A stretch of 64,000 bases of DNA from Rhodospirillaceae bacterium (GTDB lineage Bacteria > Pseudomonadota > Alphaproteobacteria > Bin65): assembly GCA_011523655.1 (NCBI GenBank), contig WTGH01000009.1:35151-99150 (forward strand). Reading direction: 5' to 3'. Within the stretch, counting starts at the first letter, position 1. Every line of letters starts with the position of its first letter. This document shows, piece after piece, positions 47,725-63,956 of the stretch. The position numbers and the translations under genes are program-made. Under the pieces are notes generated by a model, which saw only the letters and a list, made by a program, of their open reading frames with translations, did no database searches and was not told where the DNA came from.

Positions 47725-48597
47725 TCAACCGGCACGCGCGAACTCTTCCCCGATCCAGTCGACGAAAGTGCGCGCCGCCGGCGTTTCCTCATGTTTCGGC
47801 GCGGCGAGCAGGAAATAGCCCTCGGGCAATTCCACGCTGTGCGCGTACGGCCGCTCGAGCCGCCCGTCGGCCAGCAGGTCCCGCGCCAGCGAATCGTGGG
47901 TGATGGCGAGGCCGCCTCCGGTCAGGGCCGCGGTCATCGCGACGACATAAGTCGAGGCGAGGGTGACGCTCCGGTCCCGCGGCAGGCTGAGCCCCTGGCT
48001 GGAGAGCCAGGCCTCCCAGTTCGTCGTCACGCCGACGGTATCGAACAGCGGCGCGGTTTCCCAGCGGCGCATGTCCGGTCCGGCCTCCGGCGCGCAGACC
48101 GGATAGACCCGTTCGACCGCCAGCCGTTTCGCCGTTCCGGGCATCAGCGCGGCGCGGCCGAAGCGGATTTCCACTTCCGGAACGCCTTCTCCGTGCAATG
48201 GGTCCCAGATCGGCGTCGACAGGTTGAGCGACAGCCAGGGATGGGCCGCCAGCAGGCCGCCGAGCCGCGGCGCGAGCCAGAAGGTCGAGAAGGCGAGATT
48301 GCAGGTCACCATCAGGCGCCGGCCCCGGTCGCCGCCGGTCAGCGCGCGGGTGCCGCTGCCCAGGATTTCGAACGCGTCCTGTACGATCGGCAGGTAGTTC
48401 GATCCGGCCTCGGTCAACTGGAGCGCCCGGGTCTTGCGGACGAACAGGCCGAGCCCGAGCGCGGCCTCCAGGCTCCGGACATGCTGGGACACCGCCGACT
48501 GGGTGAGATTCAACTCCGCCGCCGCCTGGGTGAAGGAGAGATGCCGCGCCGCCGCCTCGAAGGCGCGCAGCCAGGTGAGGGGAGGGAGGCTCGCCAC
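47725..48597 (-). CDS. LysR-type regulator, GcvA-like
   Basis: A 290-residue LTTR. The HTH 'PPLTWLRAFEAAARHLSFTQAAAELNLTQSAVSQHVRSLE' is of the GcvA/AmpR branch (Pro-start, 'SFTQAA.EL..TQSAVS'). 'TCNLAFSTFWLAPRLGGLLAAHPWL' begins the effector-binding domain. The start is GTG at 48597. It is divergent from the desaturase-M24-Rieske cluster, with a perfect 6-6 dyad between them, so it very likely regulates that cluster and itself. The effector may be a substrate of that pathway. Confidence 0.93.
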   Translation of the reverse strand: MASLPPLTWLRAFEAAARHLSFTQAAAELNLTQSAVSQHVRSLEAALGLGLFVRKTRALQLTEAGSNYLPIVQDAFEILGSGTRALTGGDRGRRLMVTCNLAFSTFWLAPRLGGLLAAHPWLSLNLSTPIWDPLHGEGVPEVEIRFGRAALMPGTAKRLAVERVYPVCAPEAGPDMRRWETAPLFDTVGVTTNWEAWLSSQGLSLPRDRSVTLASTYVVAMTAALTGGGLAITHDSLARDLLADGRLERPYAHSVELPEGYFLLAAPKHEETPAARTFVDWIGEEFARAG

Positions 48598-48625
48598 GGC
48601 CGCTGGTCTCCATGCGCAACCGATA

Positions 48626-48642
48626 CATTAGTATTCCTAATG
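48626..48642. promoter_or_regulatory. LysR-type binding site (perfect dyad)
   Basis: CATTAG-TATTC-CTAATG is a perfect 6-bp inverted repeat with a 5-bp centre and fits the LTTR T-N11-A rule. The half-site CTAAT is what I remember as the recognition word for E. coli GcvA, the same branch as the adjacent regulator. It lies 29 bp from the lysR start and 78 bp before the desaturase start at 48720, and would fall inside the coding region if the track start (48612) were used. Confidence 0.75.
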
Positions 48643-48719
48643 TTACCGTTCCGAATCCATCGTTTGTCAATCCTGAGCCGGCTGCGCAGGGTTGGACCGG
48701 AAGGCCCGACAACAGGCCG

Positions 48720-49769
48720 ATGGCGATGCCGGACTGTGCCCCGACTAATGCGGCCCCGACCAATGCGGCGTCGAGCGGCATAACCCTCGACCGGAAGACG
48801 CTGAAAGCGCTCGCGCAGCGATCCGACCGGCCGGGCCTGGCCTATCTCGCGCAATGGGGCTGCGGGCTGCTGGCGTCCGGCGCCCTGGTCTGGCTGTCCC
48901 TCGGCACGCCCTGGCAATGGCCGGCCATGTTCGTCCACGGCGTGCTGCTCACGGTTCCGGCCTACGCGCTCAGCCACGAAACGGCCCACGGCACCGCGTT
49001 TCGCAGCCGCCGCCTGAACGAAACGGTCCTCTGGCTCACGTCGCTGCTCTACATGGAGGAGCCGCTGCACCGGCGCTACACCCACACCAATCACCACACC
49101 CACACCTGGCATGTCGGCAAGGATTGCCAGATGCCGTTCGACACGCCGCTGGCGCTGGGCGGCTGGCTGGCGGAGGCCTCGGGGCTGGCATTGCTGCGCT
49201 ACCAGGCGACGGTCCTGCTGCGCCTGGCGGCCGGCCGCTACACCGGAGTCATGCGCATGGTGACGCCGGAGGGCGAACTGCCGAAGATGACGCGCAACGC
49301 GCGCATCTTTCTCGCCGTTTATGCCGGCGCCGCCCTGCTCGTGGCGCTCGGAGGCTCTTGGCTGCTCTGGTTCCTGGTCCTGCCGCGCCTCCTCGGCATG
49401 CCGGTCATGATGCTGTTCACGCTGATCCAGCATGTCGAGATGCAGGAGAACTCACCGTCGATCCTCGAGAGCACGCGCTCGTTCCGGACAAACCGTCTCG
49501 GCCGGTTCCTGTACGCGAACATGAATTGGCATGTGGAGCACCATCTTTATCCCCAGGTGCCTTTCTTCGCCCTGCCGGCGCTGGCCCGCGCTGTCGCCGC
49601 GCAGGTGCCGGCGCCCGATCCGGGCTTTTTCCGCACGAATTGGGCGGTGTTCGTCGTCGTCGTCCGGCGCAGCCTGGGCCTGTCGACCGGCGCGCCGTCG
49701 ATCCGCCAGGCGCCGCACATGATTACCGACGGCGGCGCCTTCGCGCGCGTCGCCCAGCGGACCATGTGA
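48720..49769 (+). CDS. Fatty-acid-desaturase-family membrane di-iron enzyme (MocD-like)
   Basis: A 349-residue integral membrane oxygenase. All three histidine boxes are present: HxxxH in 'SHETAHGTAF' (86-90), HxxHH in 'HRRYTHTNHHTHTW' (about 117-128), and HxxHH in 'NWHVEHHLYP' near residue 265. Hydrophobic pairs lie between them. Members add or remove hydrogens using O2 and a small iron-sulfur donor. A Rieske ferredoxin of the MocE type lies two genes down, as in rhizopine mocDE. I prefer the start at 48720 because the LysR dyad lies upstream of it. The substrate is unknown and need not be a lipid. Confidence 0.85.
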   Translation: MAMPDCAPTNAAPTNAASSGITLDRKTLKALAQRSDRPGLAYLAQWGCGLLASGALVWLSLGTPWQWPAMFVHGVLLTVPAYALSHETAHGTAFRSRRLNETVLWLTSLLYMEEPLHRRYTHTNHHTHTWHVGKDCQMPFDTPLALGGWLAEASGLALLRYQATVLLRLAAGRYTGVMRMVTPEGELPKMTRNARIFLAVYAGAALLVALGGSWLLWFLVLPRLLGMPVMMLFTLIQHVEMQENSPSILESTRSFRTNRLGRFLYANMNWHVEHHLYPQVPFFALPALARAVAAQVPAPDPGFFRTNWAVFVVVVRRSLGLSTGAPSIRQAPHMITDGGAFARVAQRTM

Positions 49770-49845: not shown

Positions 49846-51144
49846 ATGAACGAGGCGGCGGACTATCGGAAGACCTTCGCCGCCCGGCCCCAGCCGCTGA
49901 CGCTGGAACAGGCCGCGCGGATCACGCCGCCGGCCCGGGTCACGGACACCGAGGGGCTGCTCGACGTTCCGCGGATGCGCGCCTGGCGGCAGAACCGGCT
50001 GCGCGAACAGATCGCCGCCCACGGGCTGGACGCCGTCGTCCTCGTCGAGCCGCTGTCGATCCGCTACGCTGCCGGCGTGCGCAACTGCGCGCTGTTCCAG
50101 ATGCACATCCAGGCCGGATACCTGTTCGTGCCCGCCGACGGCCCGGTGATCTATTTCGACAGCGAGCCGGGGCGGCACACCGGCCGCCAGCTCGAAACGA
50201 TCGACGAGGTCCGGGACGATCTCCTGCCGCTCTCCTACATGTTCGCCGGCTCCCGGCAGCGCGAAACGGCGCGCAAGTGGGCGGCCCAGATGGGCGATCT
50301 CCTGAAAGAGCATTGCGGCGGCGGGGCGCGGGTCGCCGTCGACCGCATCGGCCGCCGCGCCGCGCAGGCGTTGATCGAAAATGGCTTCGCTCCCGCCGAT
50401 GCCGCGCCGATCCTCGCCCATGCCCGCAGGGTCAAGTGTCCGGAGGAAATCCTCGCCATGAATCTGGCGCTGGCGGCGGCCGAGGACGGCATGAACCGCA
50501 TGCGCGAAGCCCTGCGCCCCGGCATCGCGGAGCAGGATCTTTGGGCCCTGATGTGGCAGGCGACGATCGAGCATGGCGGCGAATGGCTCGACTATCGCCT
50601 GCTCGCCTCCGGGGAGCGGACCAATCCGTGGCAGCAGGAAGCGTCGGGCCGGGCGATCCGGGCCGGCGACCTGGTGGTTTTCGACTGCGGTATGGTCGGG
50701 CCGCTCAGCTACGGCGCCGATGTCAGCCGCGCCTTCCATTGCGGTCCCGGGCGACCGAGCGACGAGCAAAGGAAACTCTATACGCTTGCCTGGAACGAGG
50801 TGACGCACAACACGGAACTGCTGCGCGCCGGCACGTCGTTCCGCGATTTCATCGCCGCCCGCTATATCCAGGAGCCGGGCTACGGCGACCAGCCCTATCC
50901 CTGCCTCGCACACGGCGTCGGCATGGGCGACGAGTGGCCGGTCATCCACCATTCGCCCGAGCATGACGATCATTATGACGGCGCGTTTGAAGCCGGCATG
51001 GTGATTTGCGTCGAGAGCTATGTCGGCGAGGTCGGCGGCGTCGAAGGGGTCAAGCTGGAGGACCAGGTTCTCGTCACCGAATCCGGGCCGATCGTGCTGT
51101 CGCGCTATCCCTATGAGGACTCGCTCCTCGGCCGCGAGGTCTGA
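49846..51144 (+). CDS. M24-family metalloenzyme resembling DMSP lyase DddP
   Basis: A 432-residue creatinase/aminopeptidase-fold protein. Metal ligands: D280 and D292 ('VVFDCGMVG', 'GADVSRAF'), H356 ('LAHGVGMGDEWP'), E390 ('ICVESYVGE') and E405 ('KLEDQVL'). Compared with my memory of Roseovarius DddP (D295, D297, D307, H371, D377, E406, E421), offsets are constant at 15-16. The DddP catalytic Asp377 is kept as D362, but D297 is Gly here. Shared blocks include 'RLLASGERTNPW'. It may be a DddP relative with changed substrate, or a peptidase. It sits between the desaturase and the Rieske gene. Confidence 0.72.
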   Translation: MNEAADYRKTFAARPQPLTLEQAARITPPARVTDTEGLLDVPRMRAWRQNRLREQIAAHGLDAVVLVEPLSIRYAAGVRNCALFQMHIQAGYLFVPADGPVIYFDSEPGRHTGRQLETIDEVRDDLLPLSYMFAGSRQRETARKWAAQMGDLLKEHCGGGARVAVDRIGRRAAQALIENGFAPADAAPILAHARRVKCPEEILAMNLALAAAEDGMNRMREALRPGIAEQDLWALMWQATIEHGGEWLDYRLLASGERTNPWQQEASGRAIRAGDLVVFDCGMVGPLSYGADVSRAFHCGPGRPSDEQRKLYTLAWNEVTHNTELLRAGTSFRDFIAARYIQEPGYGDQPYPCLAHGVGMGDEWPVIHHSPEHDDHYDGAFEAGMVICVESYVGEVGGVEGVKLEDQVLVTESGPIVLSRYPYEDSLLGREV

Positions 51145-51160: not shown

Positions 51161-51469
51161 GTGGGCGCATGGATCGAGGTCTGCGCGGCGGGCGATATCG
51201 AGCAAGAGGACCTGATCCGCTGGGACTACGGAAGCCGGAGCTTCGCGATCTACAATACCGGGAAGGGCTATTTCGCGACCGACGGCTATTGCACCCACGA
51301 GCGGCAGCATCTCGGCGACGGCCTCGTCATCGGCCCGGTCATCGAGTGTCCCCTGCATCAGGGACGCTTCGACATCGCCACCGGCAAGGCGCTCACCCCG
51401 CCGGTCTGCGAGGATTTGGCGACCTATCCCGTCAAGGTCGAAGGCGGCGTCGTCTTCGTGCGGCTATAG
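51161..51469 (+). CDS. Rieske [2Fe-2S] ferredoxin, MocE-like
   Basis: A 102-residue small Rieske protein with the ligands C44-x-H46 ('GYCTHERQHLGDGLV') and C63-x2-H66 ('IECPLHQGRFD'). 'FAIYNTGKGYFATDG' and 'PVCEDLATYPVKVEGGVVFVRL' are as I remember in MocE and related oxygenase ferredoxins. The start is GTG at 51161 with GGAAGGAGG upstream. It lies 16 bp past the M24 gene. It most likely feeds electrons to the di-iron desaturase two genes upstream. No ferredoxin reductase (mocF) is in the window. Confidence 0.93.
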   Translation: MGAWIEVCAAGDIEQEDLIRWDYGSRSFAIYNTGKGYFATDGYCTHERQHLGDGLVIGPVIECPLHQGRFDIATGKALTPPVCEDLATYPVKVEGGVVFVRL

Positions 51470-59808: not shown

Positions 59809-61329
59809 ATGGCCCGACGCGCCCGGGCCGCGCGCCAACGGTCTGCTGCCGCCAAGGGGGCGCCGGCTTCGCCCTATATCCGGCGGCGCCTGCCGGCATT
59901 CGAAGTCCTCGACGAGGAAGAGCTCCGGCGCATCGAAACCCAGGTCGACTGGATCGTGCAGGATGTCGGAATCGCCTTCCGCGGCGATCCCGAGGCGCTG
60001 CAATTGTGGCGGGAGGCGGGCGCCACCGTTGACGACGATCTGGTCCGCGCGCCGGCGGACTGGGTCCGCGCGATGTGCGCGAAGGCGCCGCGCCAGTTCA
60101 CGCAGCGTGCGCGCAATCCCGACCGCTCCGTGGTCATCGGCGGCGACAACCAGGTCTATGCCGCGGTCTACGGCCCGCCTTTCGTGCGCGACCTCGAGGG
60201 CGGCCGGCGCTATGGCGATCTCGAGAGCTTCCGGAACCTGGTGAAGCTCATCTACATGCACCCGCACCTGCATCACGGCAGTTTCGTGGTCTGCGAGCCC
60301 TGCGACATTCCGGTGAGCACACGCCACCTCGACATGCTTCACGCTCACATGACGCTGAGCGACAAGCCGCATTTCGGCGCCATTACCGAGAAGAGCCGGG
60401 CGCAGGACAGCGTCGACATGGCCGAGATCGTCTTCGGCCGGGAGACGATGGACGAGCACTGCGTCATCCTCGGCAACGTCAACACCAACTCGCCGCTGCT
60501 GATTGACAAGGTCGTGACAGAAGCCATCCGGGCCTATTGCGGACGGGGGCAGGGCATCGCCGTGGCGCCCTTCATTCTGTCCGGCGCCATGGGGCCGGTC
60601 TCGACCGCCGCGTCGGTCGCCCAGGCCCTCGCCGAGGCGCTGATGGTCTGCGCCTTCGCCCAGCTCGTGCGGCCCGGCGCGCCCTTCATCCTCGGCAATT
60701 TCCTGACCTCGATGTCGCTGAAATCCGGCGCGCCGACCTTCGGGACTCCGGAGCCGGCGCTGTCGCACTATGTCATGGGCCAGCTCGCCCGGCGGGCCGG
60801 GCTGCCCTTGCGCTGCGGCGGATCGCTGACCTCCTCGAAGATCGAGGATGCGCAGGCGGCCTACGAATCCGCCGATTCGATGCATTCGACCGTGCTGGCC
60901 GGCGCCAACTTCGTGCTCCAGGCGGCCGGCTGGCTGGAGGGCGGCCTGTGTACCGGGTTCGAGAAGCTGGTCATGGACGCCGACCGGCTCGGCGCGTACC
61001 GGAAACTGGTCGGCGAAGGCCTCGACACCGGCGACGAGGCCCTCGCCCGCGACGCCTATGGCGAGGTCGGCCCCGGCGGCCACTTCCTGGGCTGCGGCCA
61101 CACGATGCGCAACTACCTGACCGCGTTCTACGAGCCCGCTCTGTCCGACAACGACACCATGGAAAACTGGCTCGAACGCGGTTCGACCGACATGCGCCGC
61201 CGCGCCCATGCGCGCTGGAAGGAAATGCTGGAGCAATACGCGCCGCCGCCGATGGACGAAGCCGTGCGCGAGGAACTCGACGCCTTTGTCGCCCGGCGCA
61301 AGGAGGAACTGCCGGAAGCGTGGTATTGA
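59809..61329 (+). CDS. Trimethylamine methyltransferase (MttB) family protein, non-pyrrolysine
   Basis: A 506-residue corrinoid-protein methyltransferase-family TIM barrel. 'RRLPAFEVLDEEELRRIETQVDWIVQDVGIAF' is the standard N-terminus and 'GAPTFGTPEPALSHYVMGQLARRAGLPLRCGG' a conserved core. No in-frame stop interrupts it, so it is not the pyrrolysine enzyme; its relatives include glycine betaine methyltransferases. No corrinoid protein gene is beside it. AAGGAGG precedes the ATG. A TauABC-like transporter converges with it and might import its substrate, a methylated amine or betaine. Confidence 0.92.
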   Translation: MARRARAARQRSAAAKGAPASPYIRRRLPAFEVLDEEELRRIETQVDWIVQDVGIAFRGDPEALQLWREAGATVDDDLVRAPADWVRAMCAKAPRQFTQRARNPDRSVVIGGDNQVYAAVYGPPFVRDLEGGRRYGDLESFRNLVKLIYMHPHLHHGSFVVCEPCDIPVSTRHLDMLHAHMTLSDKPHFGAITEKSRAQDSVDMAEIVFGRETMDEHCVILGNVNTNSPLLIDKVVTEAIRAYCGRGQGIAVAPFILSGAMGPVSTAASVAQALAEALMVCAFAQLVRPGAPFILGNFLTSMSLKSGAPTFGTPEPALSHYVMGQLARRAGLPLRCGGSLTSSKIEDAQAAYESADSMHSTVLAGANFVLQAAGWLEGGLCTGFEKLVMDADRLGAYRKLVGEGLDTGDEALARDAYGEVGPGGHFLGCGHTMRNYLTAFYEPALSDNDTMENWLERGSTDMRRRAHARWKEMLEQYAPPPMDEAVREELDAFVARRKEELPEAWY

Positions 61330-61358: not shown

Positions 61359-62252
61359 TCAGACCTTGCCCTTCCACGGGACGAGGGCCCGCTCGATACG
61401 CCGCATGATAAGATCGAAAATGAAGGCGACGGCGCCGATAACCACGATGCCGAGGAAGACGATATCGGTGGCGAGGAAACGGGCGGCGTTCAGCACCATC
61501 ACGCCGATTCCCGCCTTGGCCGCGACCATCTCGGCGGCAACGAGGGTGGTCCAGCCGAAGGCGATGGCGACCCGCATTCCGGTCAGGATTTCCGGGAGCG
61601 CCGCCTTGATGACCACCTGGCGGATCACCTGCTGGCTGGTTGCGCCCATCGAATAGGCCGCATGGATCTGCTCGATCGATACCGAACGCACCCCGGCGCG
61701 CGCGTTGATCGCAATCGGCGCGAAGCAGGCCAGATAGATCAGGAAGAGCTTGCCGGATTCCCCGATGCCGAACCAGATGATGGTCAGCGGCAGATAGGCG
61801 AGCGGCGGAATCGGCCGGTAGAATTCGATCGGCGGGTCGAACACGCCGCGGGCGTAGCGGCTCATGCCCATGGCGATGCCGATGGGCACCGCGGTTATGA
61901 CCGCCAGGAAGAAGGAGCCGAAGACCCGGTAGAGGCTCCAGAGAACATGCTCGTGCAGGGCATGTTCGCTGAAGCCTTGGCATTCGGACGTGACCGCCGC
62001 ACTGGCGCCGATCAGGACGAGCAGTTGTTCGAAATAGTAATCCGTGCAGGCGATCCTGTTGAATTTCGAGATCACCATCTCGGGCGCCGGCAGGAACAGG
62101 GGCCGGATCAATTCGAGTTGCGTGGCGAGCCACCAGCCGCCCAGGATGATCACGATGGTCACCGCGCTGATGGCGGTGCTCCTGCCGCGCCCCGGTGCGC
62201 CGTACTGGTCTACGACCTCCGATTTCCGGCGCGAGAATATCCCGAGATTCAT
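61359..62252 (-). CDS. ABC transporter permease (TauC/SsuC type)
   Basis: A 297-residue permease with about six to seven membrane segments; 'ISAVTIVIILGGWWLATQLELI' is the first. The coupling EAA loop reads 'QIHAAYSMGATSQQVIRQVVIKAALPEILTGMRVAIAFGW', as in nitrate/sulfonate/taurine permeases. The start overlaps the ATPase gene stop by 4 bp (ATGA). It converges with mttB at 29 bp. It is part of a binding protein-ATPase-permease unit on the minus strand. Confidence 0.93.
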   Translation of the reverse strand: MNLGIFSRRKSEVVDQYGAPGRGRSTAISAVTIVIILGGWWLATQLELIRPLFLPAPEMVISKFNRIACTDYYFEQLLVLIGASAAVTSECQGFSEHALHEHVLWSLYRVFGSFFLAVITAVPIGIAMGMSRYARGVFDPPIEFYRPIPPLAYLPLTIIWFGIGESGKLFLIYLACFAPIAINARAGVRSVSIEQIHAAYSMGATSQQVIRQVVIKAALPEILTGMRVAIAFGWTTLVAAEMVAAKAGIGVMVLNAARFLATDIVFLGIVVIGAVAFIFDLIMRRIERALVPWKGKV

Positions 62253-63049
62253 GGCTCCAGCCCGCTCCTCTCTTCGCCGTAGATGATCGAGAGGATCTCT
62301 TCGCGCATCGCGATGAATTCGGCCGAGGACTTGACCTGCCTCGCATTGCCGGATTCGAAATACTGGTTGTAGAAATCGAGTTTGTACTCGTGCGTGATGC
62401 GGCCCGGCCGCGGCGACATGACGACAAGGCGGGTCGCCATGAACAGCGCTTCCTCGACGCTATGGGTGATGAAGAAGACGACTTTCCGGGTCTTCTGCCA
62501 AACGTCGAGAATCAGTTCCTGCATATTCTCGCGGGTGAAGGCGTCGAGGGCGCCGAGCGGTTCGTCCATCAGCAGCATGTCCGGGTCGCAGGTCAGCGCC
62601 CGCGCCAGCCCGACCCGTTGCTGCATCCCGCCGGAAAGCTGGTAGATCGGATAGTTTTCGAAGTCCGACAGGCCGACCAGGGCGAGGTTCTCGCGCGCCC
62701 TGATGCGCCGCTCGGCGCTTGCCACGCCCTGAAGCTTGAGCCCGAACTCGGTGTTCTGAATGACGTTGAGCCACGGAAGCAGGGCGTGTTTCTGGAAAAC
62801 GACGCCGCGGTCCCGGCCCGGCCCGCTGATCGGATCGCCCTTGTGCAGGACCTGGCCGGATGTCGGCGGCAGAAACCCGGCGATGACGTTCAGCAACGTG
62901 GTCTTGCCGCAGCCCGAAGCGCCGAGCGCGACGACGAATTCGTTTTCCCGGAACTCGAAGTTCACGTCTTCGAGCGCCTTGACGCTTCCCAGCCCTTGCA
63001 GGGCGGGAAACACCATGGCGACGTGATTGAGGCTGATGACCGCGGTCAT
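62249..63049 (-). CDS. ABC transporter ATPase (TauB/SsuB type)
   Basis: A 266-residue ATPase with Walker A 'GASGCGKTTLLNVIAGF', signature 'LSGGMQQRVGLARAL', Walker B 'MLLMDEPLGALD' and switch 'FFITHSVEEALFMATRLVVMS', the taurine/nitrate/sulfonate subfamily pattern. It is coupled to the permease. An interval of about 160 bp with a strong hairpin separates it from the binding-protein gene upstream. Confidence 0.95.
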   Translation of the reverse strand: MTAVISLNHVAMVFPALQGLGSVKALEDVNFEFRENEFVVALGASGCGKTTLLNVIAGFLPPTSGQVLHKGDPISGPGRDRGVVFQKHALLPWLNVIQNTEFGLKLQGVASAERRIRARENLALVGLSDFENYPIYQLSGGMQQRVGLARALTCDPDMLLMDEPLGALDAFTRENMQELILDVWQKTRKVVFFITHSVEEALFMATRLVVMSPRPGRITHEYKLDFYNQYFESGNARQVKSSAEFIAMREEILSIIYGEERSGLEP

Positions 63050-63146
63050 GGGTGCCTGCCGATGTACGGCCGGTCCGGGCGCTCATGCGAAGGACGGTTC
63101 GGGAAACGCGCCCTTCCGAGCGGTTGAAGCCGGACGCTGCCATCCC

Positions 63147-63179
63147 GGCCGGAACCGGCGCCCATCGCCGGTTCCGGCC
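63147..63179 (-). terminator. 14-bp hairpin between binding-protein and ATPase genes
   Basis: GGCCGGAACCGGCG (63147-63160) pairs perfectly with CGCCGGTTCCGGCC (63166-63179) across a 5-nt loop. There is no T-run, so it is a weak terminator or an RNA-stabilising hairpin. Its position, just after the binding-protein stop, mirrors the terminator at 21463 in the Liv operon. Confidence 0.6.
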
Positions 63180-63212
63180 GAAACGACATTTGTGTGCGGC
63201 AGTCCCCGGCGC

Positions 63213-63956
63213 CTAGCAGCCGCCTTCCAGCGCCATCTTGGCGAATTTCGGGTTCGCCGAATCCGCGTAGCTGTCCAGCACCTTGTCGAGCTTGCCCTGG
63301 GCCTTCAGGAACTCCGAGGCCGCCTTCAGCGCGTTCTGCACGCCGCCGCCCAACCAGGTTCCGGAAATCTGCTGCTGGAGCGTCGGGTAGTCGTACAGGG
63401 CCAGCACGCCGCCGACCTGGCTCTCGTCGCCGGACACCGCGGCCGCGATCCCCTTGGCGTTGGCGGTGCCGGGGCCGTACTTGCCGGGGTTGGCGCGATA
63501 GTCGGCGTCAGCCGCCGCCACCATCTTCACCCACTGGCAGGCAAATTTCGGGTTCTTGTCGGTGAAACCCTTGCGCGCGACCATGGCGTCGAACGTGGCT
63601 TTGCCCCAGTTGCTGAGGTCGCCGGAGGTCAGCAGAACCCGCCCCTTCTTCTTCATGCGGCCGAGCGCCGGATCCCAGACGAAACCGCCGTTGATGTCGC
63701 CGCGTTCCCACGCCGCAACCATATCCGGCGGAGACATGTCGATGACCTTCAGTTCCTTCGGCGAGATGCCGAACTGCTCCAGGGCGAACATCATGTGGAA
63801 ATGGGTCGTCGAGCCGAATGGCACGGCAATCGTCTTGCCCTTGAGGTCCTGCGGCGCAGTCACCGACTTGTCGACGACCAGGGCTTCGGCATCGTTGATG
63901 TTATCGTAGATGTAGATGACCTGCAGGTCGACGCCCCGGCTGTAGCCGGTGACGTA
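63213..63956 (-). pseudogene. TauA-type periplasmic binding protein, N-terminus missing or interrupted
   Basis: The frame reads from 'YVTGYSRGVDLQVIYIYDNI' through 'GKTIAVPFGSTTHFHMMFALEQFG' and 'NGGFVWDPALGRMKKKGRVL' to 'FAKMALEGGC', about 248 residues of a TauA/SsuA-like receptor; the family has about 320-340. Directly upstream is an in-frame TGA (63957-63959). The next 41 bases to the window edge resemble no TauA N-terminus in any frame. So the gene is broken at about 63957, perhaps by an inserted element, or the assembly ends in a junction. The track ORF starting at 63863 is an artefact of this. Confidence 0.7.

What the first reader, a model, noticed from the sequence alone, without database searches (positions are those of the whole stretch)
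49846..51144. DddP-like protein keeps catalytic Asp377 equivalent but lacks Asp297
Sequence: D280, D292, H356, D362, E390, E405 line up with DddP D295, D307, H371, D377, E406, E421 at near-constant offset, while the position of D297 is Gly282. Known (from memory): D297 helps bind the metal pair in DddP and D377 is the proposed base. General M24 peptidases lack both special Asp residues. So this protein is intermediate between the two groups.
Basis: partly seen in the sequence, partly recalled or inferred. Interest (0 to 1): 0.7.

Follow-up and report, generated by a model that had tools for sequence, protein, structure and literature searches.

The report
DddP-like metalloenzyme in uncharacterised catabolic operon
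The gene encodes a relative of the marine DMS-producing enzyme DddP that has lost one of its six metal-holding residues, but it belongs to a separate branch tied to its own conserved gene cluster, so it is most likely a breakdown enzyme for some other small methylated molecule rather than a half-evolved DMSP lyase.

Summary
In the 432-aa M24 protein, D280, D292, Y351, H356, D362, E390 and E405 align with DddP D295, D307, Y366, H371, D377, E406 and E421, and G282 stands at D297.

The D377 equivalent is not DddP-specific: it is present in 40 of 47 sampled DddP-like M24 proteins outside this clade, and D297 in all 47. Loss of D297 (DTD to DCG) marks the query's own clade, about 15 genomes found. 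That clade is separate from verified DddP (AU p = 0.0019). The NCBIfam DddP score is 294 bits against a 600 cutoff; a true DddP scores 903. Its nearest relatives keep D297, so secondary loss is favoured, but outgroup rooting cannot exclude an early branch.

The new element is a conserved LysR-linked catabolic operon holding this enzyme: class II aldolase, desaturase plus Rieske ferredoxin (or other iron oxygenases), a PanB-like protein and the M24 enzyme. None of 74 other DddP-like loci scanned has the aldolase or PanB-like gene nearby. Best reading: a lyase or hydrolase in catabolism of a small methylated (betaine-like) compound. The substrate is unknown.

The parts
49846..51144 (+). DddP-like M24B metalloenzyme, 432 aa (the finding)
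50683..50691 (+). codons for D280-C281-G282 (DddP D295-T296-D297; the sixth metal ligand is replaced by Gly)
50929..50931 (+). codon for D362 (DddP D377, proposed catalytic base)
48612..49769 (+). FA_desaturase-family membrane di-iron oxygenase with His boxes HETAH, HTNHH and HVEHH; the likely start, by homologues, is near 48726
   Evidence: Pfam PF00487 109.6 bits; conserved next to the M24 gene in 9 of 15 clade genomes
51161..51469 (+). MocE-like Rieske ferredoxin (CxH...CxxH), probable electron donor of the desaturase
   Evidence: PF00355; TIGR02377 130 bits against a 136 cutoff; motif
47725..48597 (-). divergent LysR-type regulator (GcvA / choline-sulfate-regulator-like)
   Evidence: conserved in 12 of 15 clade genomes

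Best explanation
The protein is a member of a distinct, apparently undescribed subfamily of DddP-like M24B enzymes, not a DddP DMSP lyase. It works as a small-molecule C-N or C-S bond cleaving enzyme (lyase or hydrolase) in a LysR-controlled catabolic operon for a small carboxylated, N- or S-methylated (betaine-like) compound. Inferred mechanism: a metal pair, or a single metal, held by the five canonical M24 ligands D280, D292, H356, E390 and E405 binds the substrate carboxylate. D362 acts as general base in place of the peptidase histidine, with Y351 lining the pocket. The membrane di-iron desaturase plus its Rieske ferredoxin (or, in Rhodobacteraceae, a Rieske oxygenase, a gamma-butyrobetaine-dioxygenase-like enzyme and a FA_hydroxylase) hydroxylates the substrate, and the aldolase and PanB-like enzymes, where present, process the carbon skeleton. 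Shown here: the residues, the fold, the separate clade and the operon conservation. Inferred: the substrate class, the order of steps and the chemistry.
For: Five M24 metal ligands are invariant in 57 aligned members. All three peptidase histidines are absent: Q263, P352 and D362 stand opposite them in the alignment to 1pv9, and DddP is known to have exchanged two such His for Asp and Phe and to lack measurable peptidase activity (PMC5395565). The fold is DddP-like, TM 0.89. Operon in 15 clade genomes (counted by hand): LysR in 12, aldolase in 10, PanB-like in 8, desaturase in 9 or FA_hydroxylase in 5 (never both). None of 74 other family loci has the aldolase or PanB-like gene nearby. The L152 relative has homologous desaturase (52%) and ferredoxin (50%) beside its M24 gene. 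Betaine context: GbcA-like Rieske oxygenase and TmpA / gamma-butyrobetaine-dioxygenase-like neighbours inside clade operons. Relatives outside the clade sit beside MttB-family methyltransferases (26 of 60 loci over 12 kb), GbcA-like oxygenases (10 of 60) or glycine-betaine-type ABC parts (5 of 60), and in annotated plasmids beside betaine transporters and 4-hydroxyproline epimerase.
Against: No member of the clade has been assayed to my knowledge and no substrate is identified. The MttB count is dominated by close Mesorhizobium relatives, and no background rate for such neighbours was measured. The Alisedimentitalea relative sits in a cluster with guanidino-compound genes (5-guanidino-2-oxopentanoate decarboxylase, agmatinase), so the substrate could be a guanidino or amino acid rather than a betaine. 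The window genome lacks the aldolase at this locus and has no PanB-like homologue at E <= 1e-10, so the full pathway may not operate in this organism.
Confidence: 0.5

Rival explanations
1. It is a genuine DMSP (or DMSOP) lyase that works with five instead of six metal ligands.
For: D377, Y366 and the other five ligands of DddP are kept. Carriers include marine Rhodobacteraceae and sponge- or coral-associated genomes, where DMSP is plausible (habitats inferred from record titles).
Against: D297A abolishes activity in Roseovarius nubinhibens DddP (PMC10989825; PMC4108388). W95 and F278 are also replaced. It is far from the DddP clade and at 294 of 600 bits. The own genome holds a paralogue on another contig with the whole six-ligand signature, and Tropicibacter G043 holds its own DddP-clade protein (L150) besides its clade member.
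Confidence: 0.1
2. It is an evolutionary intermediate: an early branch of the DddP-like family that gained D377 before D297 was acquired.
For: Outgroup prolidases have Gly at the D297 position (DLG in 1pv9). Outgroup rooting does not exclude a root on the query stem (AU p = 0.30), and a constrained search with the query clade basal found a slightly better likelihood than the free search.
Against: The best outgroup attachments lie elsewhere, 6.5 lnL units better. Free trees nest the clade with D297-bearing L152/L155 and L153 (98-100 bootstrap). Several lineages lacking D377 still have D297.
Confidence: 0.17
3. It is an ordinary Xaa-Pro peptidase, as automatic annotation calls its relatives ('Xaa-Pro peptidase family protein').
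For: Pfam Peptidase_M24 and Creatinase_N match, the five metal ligands are canonical, and the motif is DxG as in prolidases.
Against: All three catalytic histidines of M24B peptidases are missing (Q263, P352, D362 in the alignment). It groups with DddP-like proteins, all 57 of which match the DddP model, with E down to 1e-166, and it sits in a small-molecule catabolic operon.
Confidence: 0.07

Closest known systems
DddP DMSP lyase (RlDddP 4rzy, RdDddP 4b28; NCBIfam NF043017)
   Same: Fold (TM 0.87-0.89), five of six metal ligands, Y366 and D377, the NPWxQE and HGxGxxDE motifs, loss of the M24 peptidase histidines
   Different: D297 is Gly, W95 is Phe, F278 is Gln; 33% identity; 294 of 600 bits; separate clade; different gene neighbourhood
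DddP-like M24 proteins beside MttB methyltransferases (Mesorhizobium, Roseibium) or GbcA-like Rieske oxygenases (Pelagibacteraceae, Rhizobium)
   Same: Family, D377 in most of these lineages, onium/betaine gene context
   Different: All keep D297; no aldolase or PanB-like neighbour was found at these loci
Plasmid-borne M24 of Alisedimentitalea scapharcae and Rhodobacteraceae M382 (L152, L155)
   Same: Nearest relatives (50% identical); the same desaturase plus ferredoxin beside the M24 gene
   Different: DTD kept; neighbours include 5-guanidino-2-oxopentanoate decarboxylase
MocD/MocE rhizopine oxygenase system
   Same: Desaturase-family oxygenase (MocD from memory) paired with a MocE-family Rieske ferredoxin
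   Different: No other moc genes seen; the ferredoxin is just below the MocE family cutoff
Other small-molecule M24 enzymes: ectoine hydrolase DoeA and creatinase
   Same: M24B fold used for non-peptide C-N bond cleavage
   Different: Only about 16-18% identity, TM about 0.7

Membership tests
DddP DMSP lyase | Six metal ligands D295, D297, D307, H371, E406, E421 | tested here: not met
   Five of six present; D297 is Gly282
DddP DMSP lyase | Proposed base D377 and Y366 present | tested here: met
   D362 and Y351; but D377 also occurs in 40 of 47 other family members
DddP DMSP lyase | Score above the NCBIfam DddP equivalog cutoff (600 bits) | tested here: not met
   294 bits; positive control L014 903 bits
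DddP DMSP lyase | Placement in the verified DddP clade | tested here: not met
   Separate 100/100 clades; joint clade rejected, AU p = 0.0019
DddP DMSP lyase | Produces DMS and acrylate from DMSP | not testable with these tools
   Needs an enzyme assay
M24B Xaa-Pro peptidase | Catalytic histidines (E. coli AMPP H243, H350, H361 equivalents; AMPP numbers from memory) | tested here: not met
   Q263, P352, D362 opposite the prolidase His in the 1pv9 alignment
M24 metalloenzyme superfamily (pita-bread fold) | Five metal ligands and pita-bread fold | tested here: met
   Invariant ligands; model TM 0.89 to DddP and about 0.6-0.7 to prolidases
DddP-like M24 family | NPWxQE and HGxGxxDE motifs, closest relatives DddP-like | tested here: met
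MocE-type oxygenase ferredoxin (51161-51469) | Above the TIGR02377 cutoff | tested here: not met
   130.0 bits against a 136.15 cutoff; Rieske motif present

The most novel reading that the evidence does not exclude
The clade defines a new M24 enzyme activity: a five-ligand, Asp-base lyase or hydrolase acting with a desaturase/Rieske hydroxylation in a previously undescribed marine catabolic pathway (LysR, class II aldolase, iron oxygenase, PanB-like, M24) for an abundant methylated osmolyte or related compound.
Probability: 0.3. Interest if true: 0.7.

Novelty: new variant of a known kind. Interest (0 to 1): 0.45.

Why it matters
DddP accounts for about 65% of bacterial ddd genes counted from sequence in Tara Oceans data (PMC10686828). 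This work shows that D377 alone is not diagnostic and that a widespread family of relatives, including this clade, is DddP-like without meeting the DddP tests, so loose homology cutoffs would overcount DMS producers. The conserved operon gives a concrete handle for discovering the real substrate, and for asking how a peptidase fold was recruited for methylated-osmolyte chemistry.

Tried and rejected
Homarine pathway as the identity of the operon: no supporting paper in the library. Proline-betaine pathway literature: the key paper was not held, and the passages found in the eLife paper mention no M24 enzyme for it. First structure prediction with 8 sequences gave a poor model (pLDDT 59); repeated with 57. 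First outgroups (other M24 proteins of the own genome and G043) had very long branches; replaced with prolidase C-domains, and the root was still unresolved. Cupin DMSP lyase (PF16867) in the own genome: none at E <= 0.001. I considered the possibility that a fragment or frameshift explains the missing Asp and rejected it: the ORF is intact and Gly is conserved in all clade members.

Full report
What was checked. The ORF at 49846-51144 (+) translates to a 432-residue protein (P0001) with Creatinase_N and Peptidase_M24 domains. Its closest solved relatives are DddP structures (E about 1e-66), far ahead of prolidases (E about 1e-19). Position by position against RlDddP numbering: D280=295, C281=296, G282=297, D292=307, Y351=366, H356=371, D362=377, E390=406, E405=421. 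Two further DddP residues differ: W95 is F84 and F278 is Q263. The three catalytic histidines of M24B peptidases are also absent; opposite them in the 1pv9 alignment stand Q263, P352 and D362 (the E. coli AMPP numbering H243, H350, H361 is from memory).

What the residues mean. Published work says six ligands bind the metal pair, that D297 is the one not conserved with methionine aminopeptidases, that alanine at any of the metal ligands inactivates RnDddP, and that D377 is the favoured base with Y366 as an alternative (PMC4108388). It also says that two M24 histidines are exchanged for Asp and Phe in DddP and that RlDddP has no measurable Val-Pro peptidase activity (PMC5395565). In an alignment of 57 relatives, the five canonical ligands are invariant. 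D297 is Asp in 47 of 47 proteins outside the query's clade and Gly in 10 of 10 inside it; D377 is Asp in 10 of 10 inside and 40 of 47 outside, the other seven having Gly. So D377 is not a DddP mark, and the clade differs from the whole family at D297.

Phylogeny. The query clade and the DddP clade each have full support; forcing them together costs 271 lnL units, AU p = 0.0019. The nearest relatives are plasmid genes of Alisedimentitalea and strain M382 (L152, L155), then one of Pseudomonas sp. MPC6 (L153), about 50% identical; L152 and L153 were read as DTD. I tested the 'intermediate' idea directly by attaching prolidase outgroups to all 137 branches of a C-domain tree. The best attachments lie elsewhere, but 63 placements, including the query stem (6.5 lnL worse, AU p = 0.30), cannot be rejected, and one constrained search with the query clade basal found a slightly better likelihood than the free search. 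Secondary loss of D297 is favoured; an early-branching origin is open.

Membership. NCBIfam's DddP model gives 294 bits against a 600 cutoff; a DddP-clade protein gives 903. The same genome holds a paralogue on another contig (L002:712-2046) with the complete DddP signature, 405 bits, nearer to DddP in the tree but also outside the verified clade. The query should not be filed as DddP.

The operon. In 15 genomes with the clade, counted by hand, the gene lies in a recurring set: divergent LysR (12), class II aldolase (10), PanB-like protein (8), desaturase (9) or FA_hydroxylase (5, never together), Rieske ferredoxin (7), GbcA-like Rieske oxygenase (3), gamma-butyrobetaine-dioxygenase-like enzyme (2). 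None of 74 other DddP-like loci has an aldolase or PanB-like homologue nearby (some of these loci are short contigs). The window retains LysR, desaturase, M24 and ferredoxin; the aldolase is absent here but present in sister genome G002, whose M24 is 97% identical, and no PanB-like homologue was found in the window's genome at E <= 1e-10. The clade is rare: 6 of 397 Rhodobacteraceae genomes and 6 of 385 in the class sample, four of the latter from the window's own genus.

Likely function. Relatives outside the clade sit beside MttB-family methyltransferases (26 of 60 loci longer than 12 kb, mostly Mesorhizobium and Roseibium), GbcA-like oxygenases (10 of 60) and glycine-betaine-type ABC parts (5 of 60), or in annotated plasmids with betaine transporters and 4-hydroxyproline epimerase. 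No background rate was measured, so this is a lead. With the operon's oxygenases it points to a small methylated, betaine-like substrate; the guanidino genes in L152 are an alternative lead. The AlphaFold model (pLDDT 87, pTM 0.89) matches RlDddP at TM 0.89, which supports a DddP-like pocket with a five-ligand metal site. The chemistry (D362 as base, carboxylate on the metal) is inferred by analogy.

Verdict. Observation confirmed; interpretation partly supported. This is a new variant of the DddP-like M24 family in an apparently undescribed operon; I found no paper on it in the library, which lacks most subscription journals.

Noticed in passing
L002:712-2046 (G000 contig C35): A second DddP-like M24 protein in the same genome with all six DddP metal ligands, D377, Y366, W95 and F278 (405 bits against the 600 cutoff): a better DMSP-lyase candidate than the query.
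   Followed up: partly
window 48598-48726, compared with L112:6162-7052: The class II aldolase gene found between LysR and desaturase in sister genome G002 is missing in the window genome, G001 and G003.
   Followed up: partly
window 59809-61329 and 61359-63863: MttB-like (trimethylamine methyltransferase family) gene next to an oppositely oriented ABC transporter that looks like a taurine/nitrate-type (TauABC) system.
   Followed up: no
L126:12640-15934, L027:161-1963, L029:1369-4688: Rhodobacteraceae versions of the operon seem to lie next to adenine deaminase and AMP nucleosidase genes (judged by eye, not by a family search).
   Followed up: no
L098:640-2984, L099:6893-9233, L102:2470-4807: Pelagibacteraceae DddP-like M24 genes sit directly downstream of a GbcA-like Rieske oxygenase; L090, L093 and L094 have a GbcA-like gene and ProU-type transporter parts further upstream.
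   Followed up: partly
L152:7006-11248: 5-guanidino-2-oxopentanoate decarboxylase, desaturase, ferredoxin and M24 cluster on an Alisedimentitalea plasmid, with agmatinase/arginase-family genes nearby.
   Followed up: partly
L125:7808-9499: Two adjacent PanB-like copies in one operon version.
   Followed up: no
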